From: Paguma larvata
Taxonomy: Eukaryota; Chordata; Mammalia; Carnivora; Viverridae
NCBI GenBank assembly: GCA_030068075.1
Contig: CM057841.1
Span: 47,223,030 to 47,287,029 of the forward strand
Length of the DNA: 64,000 nt
Direction: 5' to 3'
Shown: positions 7,291 to 58,750 of the stretch, one piece after another
Position numbering within the stretch: position 1 is the stretch's first letter
Layout of the letters: the number at the start of each line of letters is the position of its first letter
Notes under the pieces: generated by a model
Told to the model about the DNA's origin: nothing
Seen by the model: only the letters and a program-made list of their open reading frames with translations
The model's database searches: none
Translations under genes and position numbers: made by a program

Positions 7291-7515
7291 GAACATTTTC
7301 TTAGGGACTGGAACTAGATGGGGTGACTTCATCATTGTTGTTTCATCTCAGGGTACAAAGTGTTTTTTCTTGATTCTGGTATTTTATTATAGAACCAGGG
7401 CAAAGCATCAGTTGGGCTTCCCCACTGGGAAGCATAAGAATTATATAGTGTAACTTATATGCTACACTAGTGCTCTTTAAGCACTGTACCCATCATCCAT
7501 TATCAAGACTTTGCT

Positions 7516-11819: not shown

Positions 11820-12036
11820 TCTGTTTTAATGTTTATTTGTGAGAGAGAGAGAGAGAAAGGCAGAGCGTGAGTTGGGGAGGGCTCAAGAGAGAGAGGGACA
11901 CACAGAATGTGAAGCAGGCTCCAGGCTCTGAGCTGTCAGCATAGAGCCTGATGTGGGACTTGAACTCACGAACTGTGAGATCATGATCCTGAGCCGAAGT
12001 CAGACGCTTAACTGACTGAGCCACCTGGCACCCCCT
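11820..12036 (-). mobile_element. CAN SINE, antisense
   Basis: TTTTAATGTTTATTTGTGAG tail side, head GAGCCACCTGGCACCCC at right. Target duplication GACTTCTGAACT on both sides. Confidence 0.94.
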
Positions 12037-13255: not shown

Positions 13256-13480
13256 TTTTTTTTTTTTTTTAATGTTTTTTGTTTATTCTTAAGAGATATA
13301 CAGACATAGCATGAGCAGGAGGAGGACAGAGAGAGAGGGAGACACAGAATCCGAAGCAGGTTCCAGGCTCTGATGAGCCATCAGCACAGAGCCTGACGCG
13401 GGGCCCGAACTCACAGACCATGAGATCATGACCCCGAGCCAAAGTCGGCTGCTCAACCAACTGAGCCACCCAGGCGCCCC
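13256..13480 (-). mobile_element. CAN SINE, antisense
   Basis: T-run at the left, head GAGCCACCCAGGCGCCCC at the right. It split the MIR and duplicated GAAAaAGGGTTACCTCTT, which reappears as GAAAgAGGGTTACCTCTT at its right. Confidence 0.95.
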
Positions 13481-15542: not shown

Positions 15543-15768
15543 GGGGCACCTGGGTGGCTCAGTTGGTTAAGCGGCCGACTTCGGTTCAGGTCAGATCTCA
15601 CGGTCTGTGAGTTCGAGCCCCGCGTCGGGCTCTGTGTTGATGGCTCAGAGCCTGGAGCCTGCTTCAGATTCTGTGTCTCCGTCTCTCTCTGCCCTTCTCC
15701 TGCTCATACTCTGTCTCTATGTCTCTCAAAAGTAAATAAACGTTAAAAAAAAAATTAAAAAGAAAAAA
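15543..15768 (+). mobile_element. CAN SINE, sense
   Basis: Head GGGGCACCTGGGTGGCTCAG and a full felid body close to consensus. Flanking duplication AAAGAAcCGTTTCA / AAAGAAcTGTTTCA. Confidence 0.95.
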
Positions 15769-17705: not shown

Positions 17706-17765
17706 AACTCTTACATATAGACCTATGATTCATTTGAGTTAATTTTTGTATATGGTGTGAGGTAG

Positions 17766-18367
17766 TGTAAGGGTCGAGACCCCAAATACCCAAGAAAAGA
17801 AAGTTCCAGACGCCGAGGCTGCAAAAGCATAGGAGATTTATTAGCTAGCTCGAGCTAGGGTCCAAAACCCAGAGCACCAGCGCAGTGGCCTCTTTTAGGG
17901 TAAGGACCCCTGCTCTCGGGATTCAGTTCTCTTTTTATAACATTTGTAGGGTTACGTGAGCTGTCTCTGCCCCTTCTCTTTGTTCTTTTGAGTCCAGTTG
18001 GCCGTGTCTTTCTTCTGATTGGCTCGTTTAAATTCGGGGCCTTTCAGTTGGGGGGGGGCGGGGGCGGGCTTCCTTTGTTAGTCTCATGAGGCGGGTCAAA
18101 CTGGCTCTCCCTGAGAAACAGAAACTCCAGGAGGTACAGGAAACGTAAACTGAAAGCTTTTAACCTATATCACAGAAACTGAAAGCTTTTAACATATATC
18201 ACAGAAACTCCAGGAGGTACAGGAAATGTAAACTGAAAGCTTTTAACCTATATCACAGAAACTGAAAGCTTTTAACATATATCACAGAAACTCCAGGAGG
18301 TACAGGAGATGTAAACTGAAAGCTTTTAACCTATATCACAGAAACTGAAAGCTTTTAACCTCCTTCA
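17766..18367 (-). repeat. Provirus 3' LTR (602 bp)
   Basis: On the - strand it runs from TGAAGGAGG to CCCTTACA. U3 carries three 83-bp direct repeats (starts at 18125, 18208, 18291), each with a doubled GAAAGCTTTTAACCTATATC motif. A CCAAT box lies near 18019, a TATAAAAAG box near 17932-17940 and an AATAAA poly(A) signal near 17836-17841. It differs from the 5' LTR by about four substitutions, a one-base gap and a G-rich indel near 18048-18066. Confidence 0.95.
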
Positions 18368-18385
18368 TTTCCCCCTTTTCTTTTT
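18368..18385 (-). promoter_or_regulatory. Polypurine tract (plus-strand primer)
   Basis: Immediately inside the 3' LTR the - strand reads AAAAGAAAAGGGGGAAA, the standard retroviral polypurine tract abutting the TG of U3. Confidence 0.9.
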
Positions 18386-18472
18386 ATTTACGAGCATTCT
18401 TGCTCGTACATAGGGTTTAGCTGGTGATATTGCTGTCTCATGACCATCAGCTGAACCGTGCTAACCCGTTCC

Positions 18473-20036
18473 TTAATAAAAGCTATGTCTATTTAAGATG
18501 CAGGGACCAAAGGTAAGGATAAGGATAAGTATAAGCAGTGGTCCGAGCAGGGTTGAAACCAGAGTAGTTAACCAAGGGGATGCGTTAAACCAAGACTCAA
18601 ACCAGCCTTCCCTCTGTTCTCGTTCTCGTTTACGCCGGGCCAGTCTTCTCGAACTTTGGCCATTGATTCTCGGACCACTCCAGTGTGGTCAGCATAAAAA
18701 CAACATTCTTCTCCCAAAGCTGCACATAAACCCCCTTGTTGGAGGAAGACTAGATCTAGCCCCCTTCGGTTCTGTAGGACTACTTCAGAAAGAGAGGTCA
18801 GAGATTTTTCTAGGTGCGAGATTGATTCTTCAATTCTGGCTATATCTTCATCAATGGCTGCCCTTAGGCTGTTGAATCCCCGGTGCTGCACGGCTAGTGA
18901 TGAGATCCCTGTTCCTGCCCCTATGGCACCAAGGCCAAATAAGGTGGCCAAGGTTATGGCTGTGAAGGGCTCTCTTTTTGTTCTTATTGGCTCTCTCACC
19001 TCTGTCCCTTCTGTCCATAGATCATACAAAACATATTCTCGGTGGTAAATAACCTTTGGAAACACCAATACCATGATACAATATTCTATTGATGGATTAA
19101 AAACATCCCTGTTAACACACGGAGTGAGCCCTGTCTTAGAACAAACCCACCACCCATTAAGGGCTGGAATTATCCACTTAGATTCATTTATAGAGTAATT
19201 AGTCAGGGCACAGAGCTGGATATGGCTAGAGGGGACTTTTCCTATACAAGTGCCATTGCCAGCGACTGTTTGCAGTGTGAGGCCGGGGCCCTTTCGATCC
19301 CACCTGCAGGCTGCTGGCGACGCTTCTCCTGATTGCGAAAAAGGGGCAGCTAGACCTACAGCTTCGTAGAAGGGGGGTTTTATATCATAACATAACCAGC
19401 ATGCCTTTGTCGCCTCAGGCTCCGAACGGTTTAAGGCCTCATACGCTGCTGTTAGCAATTTCCATAGGGGGTCTATGTCTTCTAGGGCCTGATTTTCTTG
19501 GACAGCTTGTGTCCTTGCCCCTTGGGTAAGGACGGGGGTCTTGCTGGAGGGAGTGGTGGAGATCTGCCTGGGTATAGGCTTTCCTCTTTTTCCCTCTAAT
19601 ACCTGATTTGGCCCTACCGGTTGCATAAGAGGGGAGACTTTCAATTTTATTTGAATGGCAGTCCCAAAGAGGGGATGTTGATATAAGTAGAGTCCCCAAG
19701 TGAGTCCTGAGACCCATCGCCTGTCCTTTTTTTTCCTTCCTCTGTAAACCTTACACAGATAAGGTTACAGTCATCATAATACCAGGTCCGGGTACATGGT
19801 CAGACATAGGACATTTCAATCAATTGGGGTTTTACTTTCTATTTCCGTTCCCCATCATTGGTGGTGACACAGCTCCAGGCTGCACAGTAGAAGTTTTCAA
19901 TCCCCTCCACATGTGCACCTCATTGCCCCCATCCTATATCCCGGACATGCATAAAGTCCATTTCTATTTATTGACACCCTCCTTCGATATTGTCTCCATT
20001 TACCTTCCTCCATTTTTTCTAATGGGCTAACTTTTT
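18473..20036 (-). pseudogene. Gammaretrovirus-like env relic (SU C-terminal part plus TM)
   Basis: Envelope remnant lacking its start and N-terminal receptor-binding part. The main open stretch (18568-19644, 358 codons) is in order: an SU CXXC motif CWLC at residues 82-85, the furin-type site RTKR at 221-224 (18973-18984), a hydrophobic fusion peptide, the coiled-coil and conserved QNRRGLD region at 291-297, and CX6CC at 307-315. A frameshift near 18600-18630 then moves the membrane anchor into another frame, which stops at 18473-18475, leaving almost no cytoplasmic tail. An upstream SU piece (19897-20030) is in a different frame. No signal peptide or env start remains. It is a dead gene whose TM ectodomain is best kept. 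Closest in style to the MLV/GALV/FeLV group. Confidence 0.9.
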
Positions 20037-20039
20037 TTT

Positions 20040-20262
20040 TTTTTTTTAACTGAAATATAGATCCACCCACCATGACCATATTTTCCTGGCTTAATCTCTG
20101 TAAAATCTATTTCCCAATAACGTCCGGGTTGCCTCCCCCGTTCCCTGGTGCCTGTGTGGGCGCCCCCGGACCTTCCCTGGTCTTGTAACCTGGCAGACAC
20201 GACAGCTGCTTGGGAATATTTCTTAAAATCTCTCTCCCGAGGTAGGCTAGCCAGAGTCAATT
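20040..20262 (-). pseudogene. Gammaretroviral integrase fragment
   Basis: An open stretch containing GRYWEIDFTEIKPGKYGHGG matches the start of the gammaretroviral integrase catalytic core with its first aspartate. Downstream it collapses into a poly-A run (20031-20047 on + as T) that joins env SU, so the rest of integrase and the env N-terminus are deleted. Confidence 0.8.
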
Positions 20263-20639
20263 AGCTCCAATCATCACAGTTATTAATCCAGGGAATGAAT
20301 GAGAAGTCCTCACATATAGCTAGAGTAACCAGATTATAGAAGGAGAAATAGTGATAGACAAAGAGAGAGTTTCTTATATTAAGCCAACACGAAGTCGTCT
20401 AGCCTCAATTTCCTACCACAGTCCTGACTTGAAACCCACAGCAATAATCACATTCCTGAGGGTCTGGCATCAGTCTAAATAGATCAAAATACATTTTAAA
20501 CTCTTCAGAGATTTTATTTCCATGATCCTCAAGTATGGCAGCATATGCTGGTTTAATAGGGGAAGAAGCTCTGGAGCCACTCTTATTATTATTATTATTA
20601 TTTTTTATGGCCCGTCTTCTTCAGAATATTAAGATAAAT
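20263..20639. other. Unassigned sequence within the provirus
   Basis: Lies between the gammaretroviral integrase scrap and the possible class II LTR. It includes (ATT)n at 20580-20602. I could not match it to any retroviral gene. It could be LTR or non-coding leader sequence. Confidence 0.35.
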
Positions 20640-20933
20640 CTCAAATCAACACAGAGGCCCAGTGACCCTATAGCCAGGTGTCCTGGCGACTCTTACCTGA
20701 CCGTTGCCTGTCTTAGGTTGCCCCCCGCTGTGAGGAGTCTTACCCGTCATTGGCTAACCGGCCCTCCTTCAGAGTCAGACCAGCCATTATGTTCTCGTCG
20801 TATTACAACCTGGCATTTGCTTCAAGGCATCCCCATCCACCGATGAGGGTCCCAGTCTAGGGCACTGCCTTATGGGCCTGAGTCTTTTCCTTAGGTACAG
20901 GTTACCAGGGCCAGTATCTTCTGGTCTCCAGCA
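20640..20933 (-). repeat. Possible class II retroviral LTR edge
   Basis: On the - strand a purine tract AAAAGGGGAGA (20934-20944) is followed by TGCTGGAGACC, which looks like a polypurine tract abutting an LTR start. This is just downstream of a class II env-TM remnant, where a 3' LTR belongs. The far LTR end is not identified and no partner 5' LTR was seen. Confidence 0.35.
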
Positions 20934-20945
20934 TCTCCCCTTTTC

Positions 20946-21240
20946 CTGTTGAAACAGATTTTTATGCTGCCCCTAAAATTCTAAAGATAACAAAATTAGA
21001 ATAGAAACTCTGATATTGATCATCATGGAAACAAAAAAAGTGATGAACAAAGTTAGAAACATTATTATCCAGACCCCCAGTATGTGTTTCTATACTTTAT
21101 CCCAGGAATGTTCAGTCTTATTAAAACACAAAGGAGTAACAAACCCACTTTCAGGTCACATGAGAGCATCACTGATCTCCTGGATGACTTGTACTAATGC
21201 AATTAGATAAAACACAATCGGAATAAGAAATATAACCTCG
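20946..21240 (-). pseudogene. Class II (betaretrovirus-like) env TM remnant
   Basis: The - strand shows an ALVQVIQEISDALM stretch, then FNKTEHSWDKV, then a hydrophobic run resembling a membrane anchor, with stops between. The pattern resembles betaretroviral TM proteins, unlike the gammaretroviral TM at 18600-18900. Weakly supported by eye. Confidence 0.45.
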
Positions 21241-21337
21241 TTCATTTCTACCCTAAATTTCCCAGAAGACTAAAGTACAAAAGAACATATGAGGCCTGGA
21301 CACAGGCTGAAACAACATAGAGAAAACGTCTCAGGGG

Positions 21338-21915
21338 TCAAGGGAGTCCCTTGACTCTCAACAACAAGGCGGATTGTTCTGCAAAGAGAGCTTGCTCAGG
21401 GCCCTGGAGAGCATTATCCTCCATCTCTGGTAGGTAGAAGGCAGTGGAGGCGTCGGAGTGAAGTTTCAAAGAGCGTCTCTGCATCTCCCTTTGGGTCATC
21501 CTTTGAAGAACCGGAGGAGATGGCAGTGGCTTGGGGAGGCTGGACATAGGCTGTACCAATCTATCAGGAATCGACAGAGGGGAGTCCACGTCCTGTGGAA
21601 ATGCACAAGCATACCCTCGCCCCCAGGTTAACACTACATCCTATTAGATCTTTTGAAGGCGGCTGGTGTATAAGCAGGGGCATTGTCTGTTTTGATTGCC
21701 CTGGGAATTCCCAAGTAGGAAAAGCATAGACAAAGGTGCTGGATCACATCCTTAAAGGCCTCTCCTGTATGTGCCAAGGCAATAACATGAGAAAGGTATC
21801 CACACACATGCACATAGGAAAGTTTACCAAAAGATAGAACATGAGTAACATCCATCTGCCAAAGATCATTAGGCCTCAGGCCTCTAGGGTTCCAATTGAC
21901 CTTTGCTATAGGCAA
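21338..21915 (-). pseudogene. Class II (betaretrovirus-like) integrase remnant
   Basis: Two pieces. The upstream one (21634-21915) has the core motifs [11 protein letters not shown] and [10 protein letters not shown] with the first two acidic residues of the DDE triad. The downstream one (21338-21634) begins LTWGRGYACAFPQD and continues toward a DRLVQP stretch, the C-terminal DNA-binding domain style of betaretroviral integrases. The part between them, with the third catalytic residue, is missing. This differs clearly from the gammaretroviral integrase scrap at 20040-20262, so two integrase lineages coexist in one provirus. Confidence 0.8.
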
Positions 21916-22019
21916 TTACTAGGTTTGCCCCCCTTTGTTAGTAAAGTAGCCAGCAGTGCCAGATAAGATGTAACTATCTTTCTGGGTGTGGAGGACAGAT
22001 GTAACCATGTAAAGGTGCC

Positions 22020-22213
22020 TCGCGTTAAGCCTCATTAAAAGCCCACAAAACCAAACTGGTTTTAAAGCTTGATCCACAAACCTTTTGACATAGGGTGGGG
22101 CTATTTTTCATGCCCTGAGGCATGATACCTCTGAAAAGGCCACCTAAGGTTCTCAGAAGGCAGGCTAAAGGCAAATCTAGGGCGACCTTCCCGATCTAGG
22201 GGAATGATGATAT
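22020..22213 (-). pseudogene. Class II (betaretrovirus-like) reverse transcriptase fragment
   Basis: The - strand encodes PRFAFSLPSEN and, after frameshifts, MPQGMKNSPTLCQK and then FVDQALKP. The QGMxNSP block with the following LCQKFV is the class II form of the RT B motif. The catalytic YXDD region and RNase H are absent before integrase begins at 21915. Confidence 0.75.
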
Positions 22214-23545
22214 TGCCACCATTTTTTTCCAGCCTTTGGATCAAAGGAGGAGGAATTTTTACCACTTGATAAAAGTACAATCCTGTGTACTTTTAAAATC
22301 CATGTCTTTTAACCTTAGTCTGTCCTGACCACACATAATACTCCTTTTTTAAAGGTTTTTTTTCCTTCATGAACCTTCTACAATTTGTCTTTGGCATTTA
22401 GATTTTGTCCAAAGCCATTTTTCTCCAAATAACCAGTCAGATTTAGGACAATATTACTTTCTTTTACCTTCAGTAAAAGCATATTTCTATTTTTTTAAAT
22501 ATTTTTTTATATTTCCTACTTTCTTACATACAGAGTTGTTTTCCTTATTTTTATCAGTCTTAAATACACTTCCCAGAATTTTAACTGCTAGAAACCTTAG
22601 TCTTCAGTGAAAACTAAGTAATAACCAGTCGTGAACTCTGTTATATCAGAATTTGCTAGATGGCAAACTTATAAATTGATTAAGCACAAAGCATGTTTTT
22701 CAACAGTTCCAAATATCCTTAGTTTTTGCAACAGGTCCAAAGCACAAACCTACATTTAGTAATTAGTGCTTCAGCTTCTTATCTCGTTAGATAGCCAATG
22801 ATTTCAATTTCAAGTTCTCATGCAAGCCAAACTCTTAACACTTTAGGTTACCAAGGACTTTGAAAGCTATCTTAACATTTACCCACAAAAACTATGAGGC
22901 AGATCAAGTTAACCATCGCTTTCAGGCTTCCTTATGCTAACAAATTGGAACAGAGATAACATAAGTTTGTTTGACCTTCAGTAAACCTTAGTAAAATAAA
23001 CTTTTATGTTTAATGCTGATAACTTTAAAGACAGATCCATCAAACAAATTTACCAAATATGTTTCATTTACGATTTCATTTCTGGGGAGTTTGTTAAAAC
23101 CTTAGGAAGTCATTATAAAGCACATCCTAAATAGGATCACAGATCATTACAAATCTTAAAACTCTATTTGACCAAGGCGGCAATAAAAAAATCCTAAAGG
23201 CCAAAGTATAGCATCATATAGCTGTTAGCAAAACCTAGCTCCTTTAACATTGAGATGTTTTTACTGAGCAATTAAAGACCTGATAAAGATGAAACCTAAA
23301 GCTTTGGTTTTCCCGTAGAAAAGAGAAAAAAATCCTTTCTTCACATGATCTTATCAAGAGCAGAGTAGTCCCAGAAAACTTTGTTTTAAATGGAGAAAAA
23401 AAGCAGAACTCCAACTCTATACCAGTGTACTTTTGAAATCCCATTCATCTCAACCTTACTTAGTATCTATCTTAACAATATTTTATCCATGTCCCCCTAA
23501 AAGTTTACCATTGTTAGGTTTCTCCCCGTGGAACCAATGAGGAAA
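22214..23545. other. AT-rich non-coding core of the provirus
   Basis: About 1.3 kb of AT-rich sequence without a meaningful frame on either strand and with no retroviral motif I recognise. The motif GTGTACTTTT(a/g)AAATCC occurs near both ends (22286 and 23424). A perfect 9-bp-armed hairpin (22271-22279/22286-22294) lies at its left end. It occupies the place of gammaretroviral RT. Possible origins are captured host sequence or degraded class II leader or LTR. Confidence 0.5.
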
Positions 23546-23879
23546 TTTAAAATTTAAAGATGCGGTTTTTTTTTTTTTTTCCTTTCGACAGTGTGGGGGT
23601 GGGGAGCGGAATGCTACCTGAGGCATTGAAGAGCCAGAGACCTAGGCCCCACCCCAGGCCACCCCCACGCGGCGGCAGAAACGGAAGGAGGGGGAAGGGA
23701 GGACAGGATGGGCGCAGAGGCCTAGAGGCTTGAAGGCAGATTAAAGCAGCCTGAAGGCAGACTGAAGCACACAGGGCAGAGAAAAGAGCTTTACATGGTC
23801 CTAAAGTCCGTCCTCTAGTTTCATAGTTAGGACCTGGATGGGTGCCATTGGTGACCTGAGGCCCCCCTTGTCTGAAAGT
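23546..23879 (-). other. GC-rich provirus segment after protease
   Basis: Proline- and leucine-rich in the open frame 23547-23960 but unlike any retroviral protein I know. Bounded by an A14 run on the - strand near 23567. Looks like rearranged sequence. Confidence 0.35.
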
Positions 23880-24056
23880 ACCCAGGACTTCTCGCTGGCT
23901 GACTTTCCTCGTGGGGTGCGGAGGACTGAATGTTGTGCTCCGCTGTCGACAAGAGGTCAACAGGGGTCCGCTCCACTTTAAGAGTTACCCTGGGCTCGGG
24001 GAGAGGGTCCGAACCCCGACTCCCCTAGTCACTCAGTTTACCTAGCTCTAAGACTT
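23880..24056 (-). pseudogene. Gammaretroviral protease relic after a gag-pol read-through stop
   Basis: The - strand carries GAC-TAG-GGG with the amber codon at 24025-24027. An in-frame stretch of protease N-terminus type follows (GSDPLPEPRVTLKVE). The usual active-site DTGA is lost to mutation or frameshift. The amber codon in this context is the gammaretroviral gag-pol read-through junction. A nearby stop ending LIE (24057) shows an extra frameshift at the end of gag. Confidence 0.75.
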
Positions 24057-25200
24057 TTACTCGATTAGCCTTGCTTTCTTCCCAGCGGCCTTTTTCGGAC
24101 ATTCTCGGGCCCAATGCCCTATCTCCTTGCAGCATGCACACTGATCTTTCTGCAGCCTCTGCTTCCTCCCGCCTCTGGTGGTTCCTTTACTTACTTCTGA
24201 GTCATCAGCCAGTCGCCGGAGATGGCGCTTTTGTTCCTTGGGGGAGTCGGCAGTGGAAGCTAGTAGTATTCTGGCCAGGTCTCGAGTCTGTTTGCTGCTG
24301 GCAGCCGCCATGGCGCAAGCCTGCCTATCCTCAGGAGGCTCTCGGTTGTTGTATACCTTTTCGGCTATTACCAGCAAATCCTGAAGACTTTTTTTTTTCT
24401 CCCAGTCTATCTATTTTCTGTAATTTCCTTCTGATGTCTGCAGCCAATTGATTTACAAAGGCCATGATAACAGCTGCCTTACTTTCCGGAGCCTCTGGAT
24501 CCATAGGGGTATAGGTACGGAATGCCTCCATGATTCTTTCTAAAAAGGCTGCCGGGGACTCATCCTTTCCTTGTTGTACGTTCCCTACCTTGGCCAGATT
24601 GGTTGGCTTCCTAGCAGCCATTCGGAGACCCCCCATTAGAGTCTGGCGGTAGACCCGGAGCCTCTCCTTACCCTCTGCCGTATTAAAATCTCATTCGGGC
24701 CGAGTTAAGGGGAAAGAGGTATCTATCTGAGCCTGGTTGGTGGTGGGATTCCCATCTACACCCGGAACCAGTCTTCGGGCCTCATTGGGGATTCTCTCTC
24801 TCTCCTCGGTCGTGAACAAAACCTGCAAAAGCTGCTGACAGTGGGCTGAGGGGTAAAGAGAACAGAATCTAATAAATCAATAAGCTCTGCCGGTTTTTCT
24901 GAAAACTTAGGATTCTGAGTTTTCCAATTGTAGAGGTCACTAGTGGCGAAGGGCCAATAGTGATGGGGCTGATTCCCCTCTGCGTCTGGGGGACCGGTGG
25001 CTCGCAGAGACAGAATAGTGGAGTGGGCGGCGGGGGCGGACTGCTCCCTCTGAGCCCTTTGTCTGGTAAAGGGCGGGCTTCCCACCGGAGCATTCCTGCT
25101 TCCCATTCTCGGAACAGTGCCCGCCTCCCCCAGAGGGGGAGGCTGGTGTTCCTCTGGCACCCTGGAGGGCAGGTACGGAGGAGGAAAGGTTAATTTTTTT
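24057..25200 (-). pseudogene. Gammaretroviral gag relic (capsid and nucleocapsid)
   Basis: Spread over three frames. 24756-25160 holds the capsid start (YWPFATSDLYNWKTQNPKF) and then a junction where capsid is internally deleted. 24331-24636 has the major homology region (QGKDESPAAFLERIMEAF). 24057-24377 ends with one zinc finger, C-x2-C-x4-H-x4-C at residues 80-93 of that frame, and basic flanks. A single CCHC finger is a gammaretroviral trait. The matrix region is not confidently recognised upstream. At least two frameshifts and one deletion make it non-coding. Confidence 0.88.
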
Positions 25201-25510
25201 TTTCTTCAGTCCCCCCTTGCAGGACAGGGTAGGGGGGTGGTGAAGGCTTGATAGGACTTTTTTTCGTCCTTTTTTCTCTCCGTCCACTGCAAAGCAAAAA
25301 TGGATTTAATTTCCAGGCGGCGCAGGGGCAGAAAGGGTTTAAGCCAAGAGGGTGGGTCCTCTACAAGGTTCTGCCAAGTAATGTCCCTAGAAACAATAAA
25401 AGAGTAGTTTGAGTCTGTCCCATAATGTACGTCCAGTAAGTCCACAAATGACACACACACACAAAAAAACACAAAAACAGACAAACAGAGGGCCCCTAGA
25501 AACAATCCTG
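25201..25510 (-). other. Leader or matrix-region remnant of the provirus
   Basis: The open frame 25206-25526 (with DITWQNLVEDPPSWLKPFLP) lies where gag matrix would begin. I cannot confirm a matrix domain or a myristoylation-type start. Includes a short CA and A-rich run at 25450-25475. Confidence 0.35.
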
Positions 25511-25810
25511 ATGGTTTCCCTCGCAAGCAGCCCCTTCAGGCCCTTGGCGGAAACTTCCCGACGGCTTCCCTCGCAAGCAGCCCCTTCAGGCCCTTGGCGG
25601 AAACTTCCCGACGGCTTCCCTCGCAAGCAGCCCCTTCAGGCCCTTGGCGGAAACTTCCCGACGGCTTCCCTCGCAAGCAGCCCCTTCAGGCCCTTGGCGG
25701 AAACTTCCCGACGGCTTCCCTCCCAAGCAGCCCCTTCGGGCCCTTGGCGGAAACCTCCCGACGGCTTCCCTCCCAAGCAGCCCCTTCGGGCCCTTGGCGG
25801 AAACCTCCCG
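25511..25810 (-). repeat. Six tandem 50-bp repeats in the proviral leader
   Basis: Six head-to-tail 50-bp units start at 25511, 25561, 25611, 25661, 25711 and 25761. Units 2-4 are identical. The two nearest the primer site (25711-25810) share CTCCCAAG and TTCGGGCC variants. The array lies between the primer-binding site and gag, where packaging and dimerisation signals normally sit. Confidence 0.97.
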
Positions 25811-25971
25811 ACGAGAGTGAGAGACGTCTGCCTACACCCTCGACCAGCGACCTTCCAGCGCATCCGCCTAGGTCCTTTGCTGGTTCCTTTTGGGCCCAGT
25901 AGCCTGTACCGTACGGATTTCCAGAATTCACTCCTCCTCGGCTCAAAGTTCTGCTCCTGGGGTCTCTGGAT

Positions 25972-25989
25972 ATCCCGGGAGAGCCCCCA
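25972..25989 (-). promoter_or_regulatory. Primer-binding site, tRNA-Pro-like
   Basis: The - strand reads TGGGGGCTCTCCCGGGAT, the complement of the tRNA-Pro 3' end apart from two adjacent bases in the middle. It starts two bases after the LTR end CA, the usual spacing region. Confidence 0.88.
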
Positions 25990-25991
25990 TA

Positions 25992-26581
25992 TGTAAGGGT
26001 CGAGACCCCAAATACCCAAGAACAGAAAGTTCCAGACGCCGAGGCTGCAAAAGCATAGGAGATTTATTAGCTAGCTCGAGCTAGGGTCCAAAACCCAGAG
26101 CACCAGCGCAGTGGCCTCTTTTAGGGTAAGGACCCCGCTCTCGGGATTCAGTTCTCTTTTTATAACATTTGTAGGGTTACGTGAGCTGTCTCTGCCCCTT
26201 CTCTTTGTTCTTTTGAGTCCAGTTGGCCGTGTCTTTCTTCTGATTGGCTCGTTTAAATTCGGGGCCTTTCAGTTCGGGGGGGCTTCCTTTGTTAGTCTCA
26301 TGAGCCGGGTCAAACTGGCTCTCCCTGAGAAACAGAAACTCTAGGAGGTACAGGAAACGTAAACTGAAAGCTTTTAACCTATATCACAGAAACTGAAAGC
26401 TTTTAACATATATCACAGAAACTCCAGGAGGTACAGGAAATGTAAACTGAAAGCTTTTAACCTATATCACAGAAACTGAAAGCTTTTAACATATATCACA
26501 GAAACTCCAGGAGGTACAGGAGATGTAAACTGAAGGCTTTTAACCTATATCACAGAAACTGAAAGCTTTTAACCTCCTTCA
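25992..26581 (-). repeat. Provirus 5' LTR (590 bp)
   Basis: Same structure as the 3' LTR, including three 83-bp U3 repeats (starts near 26338, 26421, 26504), TATAAAAAG near 26157-26165 and AATAAA near 26062-26067. It contains CTCTAGG, GAAGGC and GAGCCGGG variants and a shorter G-run than its partner. Confidence 0.95.
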
Positions 26582-27078
26582 GTAGGAGTCCAACTTCTTT
26601 CTTTTACATATGGATATCGAATTGTCCCAGAACCATTTGTTGAAAAGACTATTCTTTCACCATTGAGTGGTCTTGGAATGCTTGTCAAAGATTATTTGAC
26701 AATATATGCAAAGGTTCGTTTTTTGGCTCTCTATTCCATTGAGCTATTTGTCTGTTTTATACCCGGACCATATTGTCTTAATGACTATTGCTTTGTAGTA
26801 AGTTTTGAAATTGGGACTTTTTTCCCACAATATTTTAGAATCAGTTTGTCAATTTCTGCAAAGAAGCCAGATGAGATTTTTAGATTATTTGGTAGTAAAC
26901 AGAAATAGAATTGGTGTACATATAGAATAAATAGAATTGGTGTATACATAAGTTGTGTATAGTATATAGAAATGGAATTGGTATTTGTTTATTGATCTTG
27001 TGTCCTGCAACCTTGCTAAACTCCTTTATTACTTCTATTATTTTTAGTGGATTCCTTAAGATTTTATTTTTCTTAGTT

Positions 27079-58551: not shown

Positions 58552-58750
58552 AATTTTTTTAAATGTTTACTTATTTTTGAGAAGGAGAGAGCAAGTGGGG
58601 GAGAGGCAGAGATAGAGGGAGAGAGAGGATCTGAAACAGGCTCTATGCTGTCAGCAGGAAGCCTGATATGGGGCTTGAACTCATGAAACCATTAGATCAT
58701 GGCCTGAGACGAAGTCAGATGCTTAACTGCCTGAGCCACCCAGGCACCCC
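58552..58750 (-). mobile_element. CAN SINE, antisense, in L1
   Basis: AATGTTTACTTATTTTTGAG, GATCATGGCCTGAGACGAAG, head GAGCCACCCAGGCACCCC. Flanks TATTTTATTATTT on both sides. Confidence 0.92.

What the first reader, a model, noticed from the sequence alone, without database searches (positions are those of the whole stretch)
17766..26581. One provirus built from two retroviral lineages
Gag finger, protease junction, env, PBS and 4-bp duplication are gammaretroviral, but the middle carries class II RT (22020-22213) and class II integrase (21338-21915) in the same orientation. A separate gammaretroviral integrase scrap (20040-20262) is also present. Two integrase lineages within one LTR pair indicate either nested insertion followed by deletion, or a recombinant genome that was packaged and integrated as such. 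The absence of a recognisable class II 5' LTR weakly favours recombination.
Basis: partly seen in the sequence, partly recalled or inferred. Interest (0 to 1): 0.75.

Follow-up and report, generated by a model that had tools for sequence, protein, structure and literature searches.

The report
Multi-copy two-class recombinant endogenous retrovirus
A broken retrovirus fossil built from gammaretroviral and betaretrovirus-like pieces is not a one-off accident: many copies in this genome share the same internal joints, so the hybrid itself was copied and inserted repeatedly, some copies recently.

Summary
The minus-strand provirus (17766-26581, LTRs 5 mismatches in 590, duplication GTAG) is gammaretroviral at both ends with a class II middle (integrase nearest MMTV integrase, E 4e-28). 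All 40 places scored for the 5' joint, all 40 for the RT/AT-rich stretch and 27 of 40 for the 3' joint carry it at 86-100% identity; 8 of 9 other copies align across the 3' joint as one 4-kb block at 94.4-99.0%. Six of six loci with both edges readable have different flanks and 4-bp duplications. So the hybrid was reverse-transcribed and integrated repeatedly. Breakpoints: gamma protease/class II at 23811/23812, class II/gamma integrase near 20201, with 2-3 shared bases. An older-looking type (L052, L053) has the class II block inside a different gamma family, so ours looks like a second-step recombinant: two gamma families plus one class II element. With gag broken, pol in fragments and env truncated, it most likely moved in trans, like VL30. 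Trans-mobilisation and template switching are inferred; the host species was not tested. New variant of a known kind.

The parts
17762..17765 (.). 4-bp target-site duplication GTAG (left)
   Evidence: matches 26582-26585
17766..18367 (-). 3' LTR (602 bp, with 83-bp internal tandem units)
   Evidence: same family as L009 at 84-86%
18368..18384 (-). polypurine tract next to the 3' LTR
   Evidence: read directly from the sequence
18568..19764 (-). gammaretroviral env, open frame of 398 aa lacking the N-terminal part
   Evidence: TLV_coat E 1.2e-38 for 18851-19764; 18288-20072 is 89.7% like L009
20072..20200 (-). gammaretroviral integrase scrap, joined by an internal deletion of about 1 kb to env
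   Evidence: L009 5026 and 6024 flank the deletion; alignment to L009; weak by itself (rve E 0.054; no retroviral PDB match)
20201..20397 (-). piece of class II sequence from the gag-side region of the class II relative, out of order (3' of class II pol)
   Evidence: 20333-20200 matches L020 1077-1210 at 90%; 20334-20397 not firmly assigned
20398..21337 (-). class II sequence downstream of integrase
   Evidence: about 80% to L010 and L020 over 20398-21324
21338..21915 (-). class II integrase core and C-terminal domain, in two frames
   Evidence: rve and IN_DBD_C; best PDB matches recalled as MMTV integrase
22025..22292 (-). class II reverse transcriptase fragment; RNase H missing here
   Evidence: collinear with L010 RT, PDB 7sr6 E 2e-24; RNase H present in L020
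22293..23551 (-). AT-rich stretch without long frames, carried by the class II relative and by both recombinant types
   Evidence: 87% to L010 over 22318-23449, 85% to L020 over 22369-23551; GC 0.29-0.34 for windows within 22300-23499
23552..23811 (-). 5' end of the class II-derived block; joint with gamma protease at 23811/23812
   Evidence: L020 1359-1471 matches 23812-23686 at 76%; 2-base overlap with L017 alignment; 23552-23685 is held by L052 but not firmly by L020
23812..23984 (-). remnant of gammaretroviral protease
   Evidence: 80-83% to five G1-family loci over 23811-23879 and about 92% from 23880 on; no Pfam protease match by itself
24057..25205 (-). gammaretroviral gag (capsid, CCHC finger), broken into several frames
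   Evidence: Gag_p30 E 1.3e-36 and 2.2e-9, zf-CCHC E 3.2e-4; about 92% to L016-L018 and L021
25516..25813 (-). leader with 6 copies of a 50-bp unit; G1-like/G2-like switch lies about 25564-25756
25972..25989 (-). primer binding site, 16 of 18 to tRNA-Pro (reference 18-mer recalled)
   Evidence: read directly
25992..26581 (-). 5' LTR (590 bp)
26582..26585 (.). 4-bp target-site duplication GTAG (right)

Best explanation
This is one copy of a multi-copy, non-autonomous recombinant LTR retroelement. Step 1 (older): the interior of a defective class II provirus, already carrying the AT-rich stretch, was joined to a gammaretroviral family (G1) at the protease, giving a hybrid (R1: L052, L053, probably L010) that amplified. 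Step 2: R1 recombined with a second gammaretroviral family (G2, like L009), gaining G2 LTRs, PBS-side leader, an integrase scrap and env; this hybrid (R2, the window type) amplified too. Shown: shared joints in many loci, different flanks, 4-bp duplications, broken or incomplete genes. Inferred: the order of the steps, that the joints arose by RNA template switching, and that a gammaretroviral helper supplied Gag, RT and IN in trans.
For: 3' joint region in 27 of 40 scored places at 88-100%; 5' joint in 40 of 40 at 86-100%; RT/AT-rich stretch in 40 of 40 at 90-100%. 8 of 9 other copies align as one 4-kb block at 94.4-99.0%. 4-bp duplications GTAG, GCTT, ATTA, TAAT, CTCA, TTTG with different flanks in 6 of 6 loci with both edges readable. 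LTR mismatches from 0/394 to 20/464 in 5 loci: repeated integration over time. L052 and L053 carry the block within another LTR. L020 has Gag_p10 (class II by recall), RT, RNase H and IN and a PPT with an LTR-like start. Joints carry 2-3 shared bases. Class II pieces are out of order. Env has in-frame stops in 7 of the 9 R2 copies compared.
Against: No helper was identified and no expression was tested. L010 shares the gamma-side breakpoint 23811 but resumes at 23449, which a single simple joint does not explain. L053 lacks window 23051-23451. L020 is itself rearranged, matches at 76-90% and may not be the true donor. C15's duplication needs an LTR ending CG, not CA. The class II integrase fragment 21634-21915 has no stop in 8 of 8 R2 copies compared, though it is only 93 codons. 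Some unplaced-contig copies may be assembly duplicates; C1099 holds two equal-scoring places. Only 40 candidates were scored per search.
Confidence: 0.87

Rival explanations
1. Nested insertion private to this locus: a class II provirus inserted into a gamma provirus here and then lost its LTRs by deletion.
For: Class II provirus nested in a class I element is a known event (VL30/ERV-beta4 at mouse nonagouti; PMC6466679 passages).
Against: The same joints are present at many loci; the 1000 bases from L020's LTR-like start on have no match around the block's borders; class II pieces are out of order.
Confidence: 0.02
2. One ancestral nested insertion into a G1 gamma provirus, trimmed by deletion, was transcribed through and then replicated as an RNA, later recombining with G2.
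For: Would also give shared joints and a class II block between gamma protease and gamma 3' sequence. The block is in the same orientation.
Against: Needs deletions that remove both class II LTRs, and does not by itself explain the gag-side class II piece lying 3' of pol.
Confidence: 0.2
3. The copies spread as segmental duplications or gene conversion and not by retroviral integration.
For: Several copies sit on unplaced contigs, and C1099 and C1330 hold two places each.
Against: Six of six loci with both edges readable have different flanks and their own 4-bp duplications.
Confidence: 0.03
4. The hybrid spread as an infectious virus using its own env.
For: The window env frame is open for 398 aa; pairwise dN/dS to eight of the nine R2 copies is 0.34-0.96, to the ninth (L030, 137 codons) 2.19.
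Against: No complete gag or pol frame in the window; env lacks its N-terminal part; 7 of 9 other R2 copies have env stops.
Confidence: 0.04

Closest known systems
Harlequin (human class I mosaic: HERVE-HERVW-HERVIP-HERVE)
   Same: Multi-copy mosaic provirus with a recurring internal pattern; some such mosaics proliferated after recombination (PMC4724089, abstract and passages)
   Different: All Harlequin parts are class I; here a class II block sits inside class I ends. [quoted passage not shown]
VL30 (mouse non-autonomous class I element co-packaged with MLV)
   Same: Non-autonomous class I element mobilised by a gammaretrovirus (PMC6466679 passages)
   Different: VL30 is not described in those passages as carrying class II pol; the helper is known for VL30, only inferred here.
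ETn/MusD (mouse)
   Same: LTR element without coding capacity moved in trans by a coding relative (PMC6466679 passages)
   Different: MusD is class II and ETn derives from it; no cross-class block is described there.
Group VIII betaretroviruses (bats, MPMV/SRV) and Avibeta2 with gamma env
   Same: Beta/gamma recombination preserved in proviruses (PMC3621094 passages; Avibeta2 in PMC4724089 passage)
   Different: There the backbone is class II and only env is gamma; here gag, env and LTR are gamma and the middle is class II.
CfERV-Fc1(a) (dog)
   Same: Carnivore gamma recombinant whose recent spread is ascribed to complementation (PMC6407205 passages)
   Different: Both parents are gamma-like; the exchange is of env.
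Nonagouti VL30/ERV-beta4 nested insertion (mouse)
   Same: Class II inside class I (PMC6466679 passages)
   Different: One locus, class II LTRs present: a true nested insertion, unlike here.

Membership tests
Gammaretrovirus-like (class I) ERV | Gamma gag, env and 4-bp target duplication | tested here: met
   (4 bp as the gamma size is recalled)
Gammaretrovirus-like (class I) ERV | Gamma RT and integrase | tested here: not met
   only a scrap of about 130 bp of gamma integrase; the RT/IN present is class II
Gammaretrovirus-like (class I) ERV | tRNA-Pro primer binding site | tested here: inconclusive
   16 of 18 to a recalled 18-mer at 25972-25989
Class II (beta-like) ERV | Class II RT and integrase | tested here: met
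   (RT by way of L010); fragments only
Class II (beta-like) ERV | Class II LTR, gag and 6-bp duplication bounding the element | tested here: not met
   LTRs, gag and 4-bp duplication are gamma; class II gag domain only in L020
Amplified mosaic ERV (Harlequin-like) | Same internal joints in many loci with different flanks | tested here: met
Non-autonomous element mobilised in trans (VL30/ETn-like) | No full coding capacity but recent insertions | tested here: met
   broken gag, fragmentary pol, truncated env in the window, env stops in 7 of 9 other copies; LTR mismatches 0/394 to 20/464
Non-autonomous element mobilised in trans (VL30/ETn-like) | Identified helper, transcripts and co-packaging | not testable with these tools
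   G1 and G2 families are candidates only
FcERV gamma6 / MLERV1 family | Sequence identity to the published family | not tested
   I looked for no reference sequence of that family; PMC4643047 seen in abstract, one section and passages

The most novel reading that the evidence does not exclude
The class II/AT-rich block is kept because it replaces a cis-acting RNA function (nuclear export or translation control) that gammaretroviral pol sequence normally provides, so that a gamma element which lost its pol could still make packageable RNA. The same block would then have been kept through two successive recombinant families.
Probability: 0.1. Interest if true: 0.8.

Novelty: new variant of a known kind. 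Interest (0 to 1): 0.5.

Why it matters
The cross-class recombinants in the passages I read are mostly env swaps. Here a class II pol region sits inside a gammaretroviral shell, and the hybrid was copied to many loci in two forms, some with nearly identical LTRs. It suggests that an element without a working polymerase of either class can stay mobile, and gives base-level joints with which to test how RNAs of two retroviral classes meet.

Tried and rejected
Private nested insertion: rejected by shared joints. A class II 3' LTR starting near 20933 (my early note): rejected, because in L020 and L010 the PPT and LTR-like start lie about 165 bases beyond the stretch shared with the window. Direct repeat within the AT-rich stretch (22287 and 23424): seen by eye, not pursued. 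Constraint on the block: 300-base windows against R1 and R2 copies show no clearly protected stretch by eye, which gives the novel case no support. None of the titles and abstract starts listed by literature searches names such an element, and one search listed no paper; subscription journals are not held, so absence from print is not shown. Searches did not complete: window 20130-20400, a leader pattern, PF00552. The script failed on a file name; that stopped with an error on its last comparison (gag 24057-24410 against L009), rows before it were printed.
Full report
WHAT IS THERE. The window lies at G000:C19:47223030-47287029 of an unnamed 2.44-Gb genome. The element is on the minus strand. 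Its LTRs are 25992-26581 (5') and 17766-18367 (3'), with 5 mismatches in 590 aligned bases plus indels (one search prints 6, one just outside the LTR), flanked by GTAG on both sides. In proviral order it has a PBS at 25972-25989 (16 of 18 to tRNA-Pro, reference recalled), a leader with six 50-bp units, gamma gag (Gag_p30 E 1.3e-36, CCHC finger), a protease remnant, a class II-derived block, a scrap of gamma integrase, gamma env (TLV_coat E 1.2e-38), a polypurine tract and the LTR. Gag is split over several frames, pol is reduced to fragments and env, though open for 398 aa, lacks its N-terminal part.

IS THE MIDDLE REALLY CLASS II. The integrase core fragment's four best PDB matches, E 4e-28 to 9e-28, are entries named 'Pol polyprotein' or 'Integrase' that I recall as MMTV; the next is E 8e-8. 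The C-terminal part gives E 1.2e-10 to one of them, and IN_DBD_C E 5.8e-9. The RT fragment alone is weak, but the collinear stretch of L010 gives 7sr6 ('Polymerase', recalled as HERV-K RT) at E 2e-24, next best HIV-2 RT at 5e-13. By contrast the RT of L009 matches RT/RNase H p80 entries at E 1.5e-74 (recalled as gammaretroviral) and an entry named MMLV reverse transcriptase at 3.2e-52, far ahead of 7sr6 at 1.1e-7; its pol bears MLVIN_C.

THE GAMMA INTEGRASE SCRAP. Alone it is barely recognised: rve at E 0.054 and no retroviral chain in the PDB at E up to 10. It stands on L009: 29 residues at 79% and the DNA alignment.

PARENTS. L009 (G2) gives LTR (84-86%), env and 3' region (89.7%) and the outer leader (88.6%), but its gag is only 69% alike. 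L015-L018 and L021 (G1) give gag at about 92% (L015 only 23880-24411). L010 and L020 give the middle at 76-90%. The other 12 of the 20 had no match inside the element at this DNA threshold; three of them (L012, L013, L019) matched only its flanks. L020 has Gag_p10, RT, RNase H, integrase zinc finger, core and C-terminal domain (Gag_p10 as a class II mark is recalled), and at its 3' end a purine tract followed by an LTR-like start TGTTGGGAGCC at 7482 (that this start is typical of IAP-like LTRs is recalled). It already carries the AT-rich stretch, so that stretch probably came in with the class II donor. L010 has gamma Gag_MA (E 3.9e-7), class II pol and an LTR pair at 89%, so it is itself a hybrid.

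JOINTS. The gamma protease alignment (L017) ends at 23811 and the class II alignment (L020) begins at 23812, overlapping by two bases. The class II alignment ends at 20200 and gamma integrase (L009) takes over there, with three shared bases. The class II piece at 20200-20333 corresponds to L020 1077-1210, on the gag side, yet lies 3' of class II pol here. A simple nested insertion would keep class II order and leave LTRs or a 6-bp duplication; the 1000 bases from L020's LTR-like start have no match in 19800-21400 or 23400-24200.

OTHER COPIES. (window 20000-21000) scored 40 of 1802 candidates: 27, the window included, carry the whole stretch (or all but 11 bases) at 88-100%; 11 of these 27 are on chromosome-sized contigs. 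The other 13 carry the class II side plus a 55-base piece directly beside it, without the gamma part. (23200-24200) scored 40 of 1026; all 40 span the 23811 joint at 86-100%. (21900-22700) scored 40 of 1300; all 40 span nearly all of it at 90-100%. These are lower bounds. Of nine other R2 copies fetched, eight align over about 4 kb from env to the AT-rich stretch as one block at 94.4-99.0%; L030 has gaps.

INDEPENDENT INSERTIONS. I fetched both expected ends of 10 copies. All 10 have this LTR family at the 3' end, at about 79-99% in the pieces listed; in 5 of 10 the 5' edge was not in the stretch fetched (C12, C11, C8:48.15M, C10, C5). In the other 5, and in the window, flanks differ and 4-bp duplications are readable: GTAG, GCTT, ATTA, TAAT, CTCA and TTTG; the last needs an LTR ending CG. 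LTR mismatches, read for five loci, are 5/590 (window), 2/423 (C9), 0/394 (C1227), 4/395 (C8:115.62M) and 20/464 (C15), gaps aside. With the felid rate of 1.8e-9 per year used in PMC4643047 (passage), which presumes a felid host, that is about 0 to 12 million years, 2.4 for the window; CpG sites were not removed and gene conversion was not excluded.

TWO STEPS. L052 and L053, two of the 13, are elements with their own LTR pairs (97.2% and 91.2%). L052's LTR and leader resemble G1 (L017, 87-89%). L052 matches the window from 24172 to 20379 at 90.3% over 3881 columns, with the same 23811 joint; L053 matches in two pieces, 93.4% and 91.4%, lacking 23051-23451. So the class II block also sits in a G1-like element (R1), and the window type (R2) has G2 ends. 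That R1 came first is inferred; L053's diverged LTRs fit, but two loci are few.

HOW IT MOVED. No frame in the window encodes a full set of proteins. In-frame stops occur in env of 7 of 9 R2 copies; pairwise dN/dS to the window is 0.34-0.96 for eight and 2.19 for the short comparison with L030. The 93-codon class II integrase fragment has no stop in 8 of 8 R2 copies. Four-bp duplications fit a gammaretroviral integrase. The likeliest route is transcription from the LTR, packaging by a gamma helper, and reverse transcription and integration in trans. This is inference; no helper or transcript was tested.

COMPARISON. [quoted passage not shown] VL30 is a non-autonomous class I element co-packaged with MLV, and at nonagouti it holds a nested class II provirus with LTRs (PMC6466679 passages). 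The beta/gamma recombinants in the passages I saw have gamma env on a class II backbone (PMC3621094). Felid class I and class II ERVs are described in PMC4373062 (12 of 18 passages shown), where recombin- occurs once and chimer- never. I place this as a new variant of a known kind.

WEAK POINTS. L010 has the same gamma-side breakpoint but resumes at 23449. L020 is rearranged and may only be a cousin of the donor. Copies on unplaced contigs may repeat each other. No constraint on the block was visible, so the idea that it serves a cis function, suggested by a report that gammaretroviral pol sequence acts in cis on RNA (PMC4174252: title and start of abstract in a search listing), rests on its persistence alone. 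On checking I lowered confidence from 0.88 to 0.87, because the gamma scrap is weak by itself and L053 lacks part of the block.

Noticed in passing
L010 3202-3290: L010 shares the gamma-side breakpoint (window 23811) to within a base or two, but continues at window 23449, skipping about 360 bases of the block.
   Followed up: partly
G000:C1227:701931-710181: The R2 copy here has LTRs identical over 394 bases, the best sign of a very recent insertion among the five LTR pairs read.
   Followed up: no
17766-18367 and 25992-26581: The LTR holds about three 83-bp tandem units here; several other copies have a shorter LTR (about 394-450 bases), so unit number seems to vary among copies.
   Followed up: partly
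L020 1-7536: A class II provirus with the AT-rich stretch between a gag domain and RT, and a small extra copy of integrase sequence ahead of RT.
   Followed up: partly
22287 and 23424: Similar short motifs at both ends of the AT-rich stretch, possibly an internal direct repeat.
   Followed up: no
G000:C11:99065000-99083003: R2 copy with a second stretch of class II block (87.7% to the window, L037) where its 5' LTR was expected, and an LTR of this family further on at 99082615: possibly nested or tandem elements.
   Followed up: no
11944-12029, 13389-13475, 15548-15632, 58660-58745: ARAGORN reports four tRNA-like genes (bacterial code); perhaps SINE-derived, not tested.
   Followed up: no
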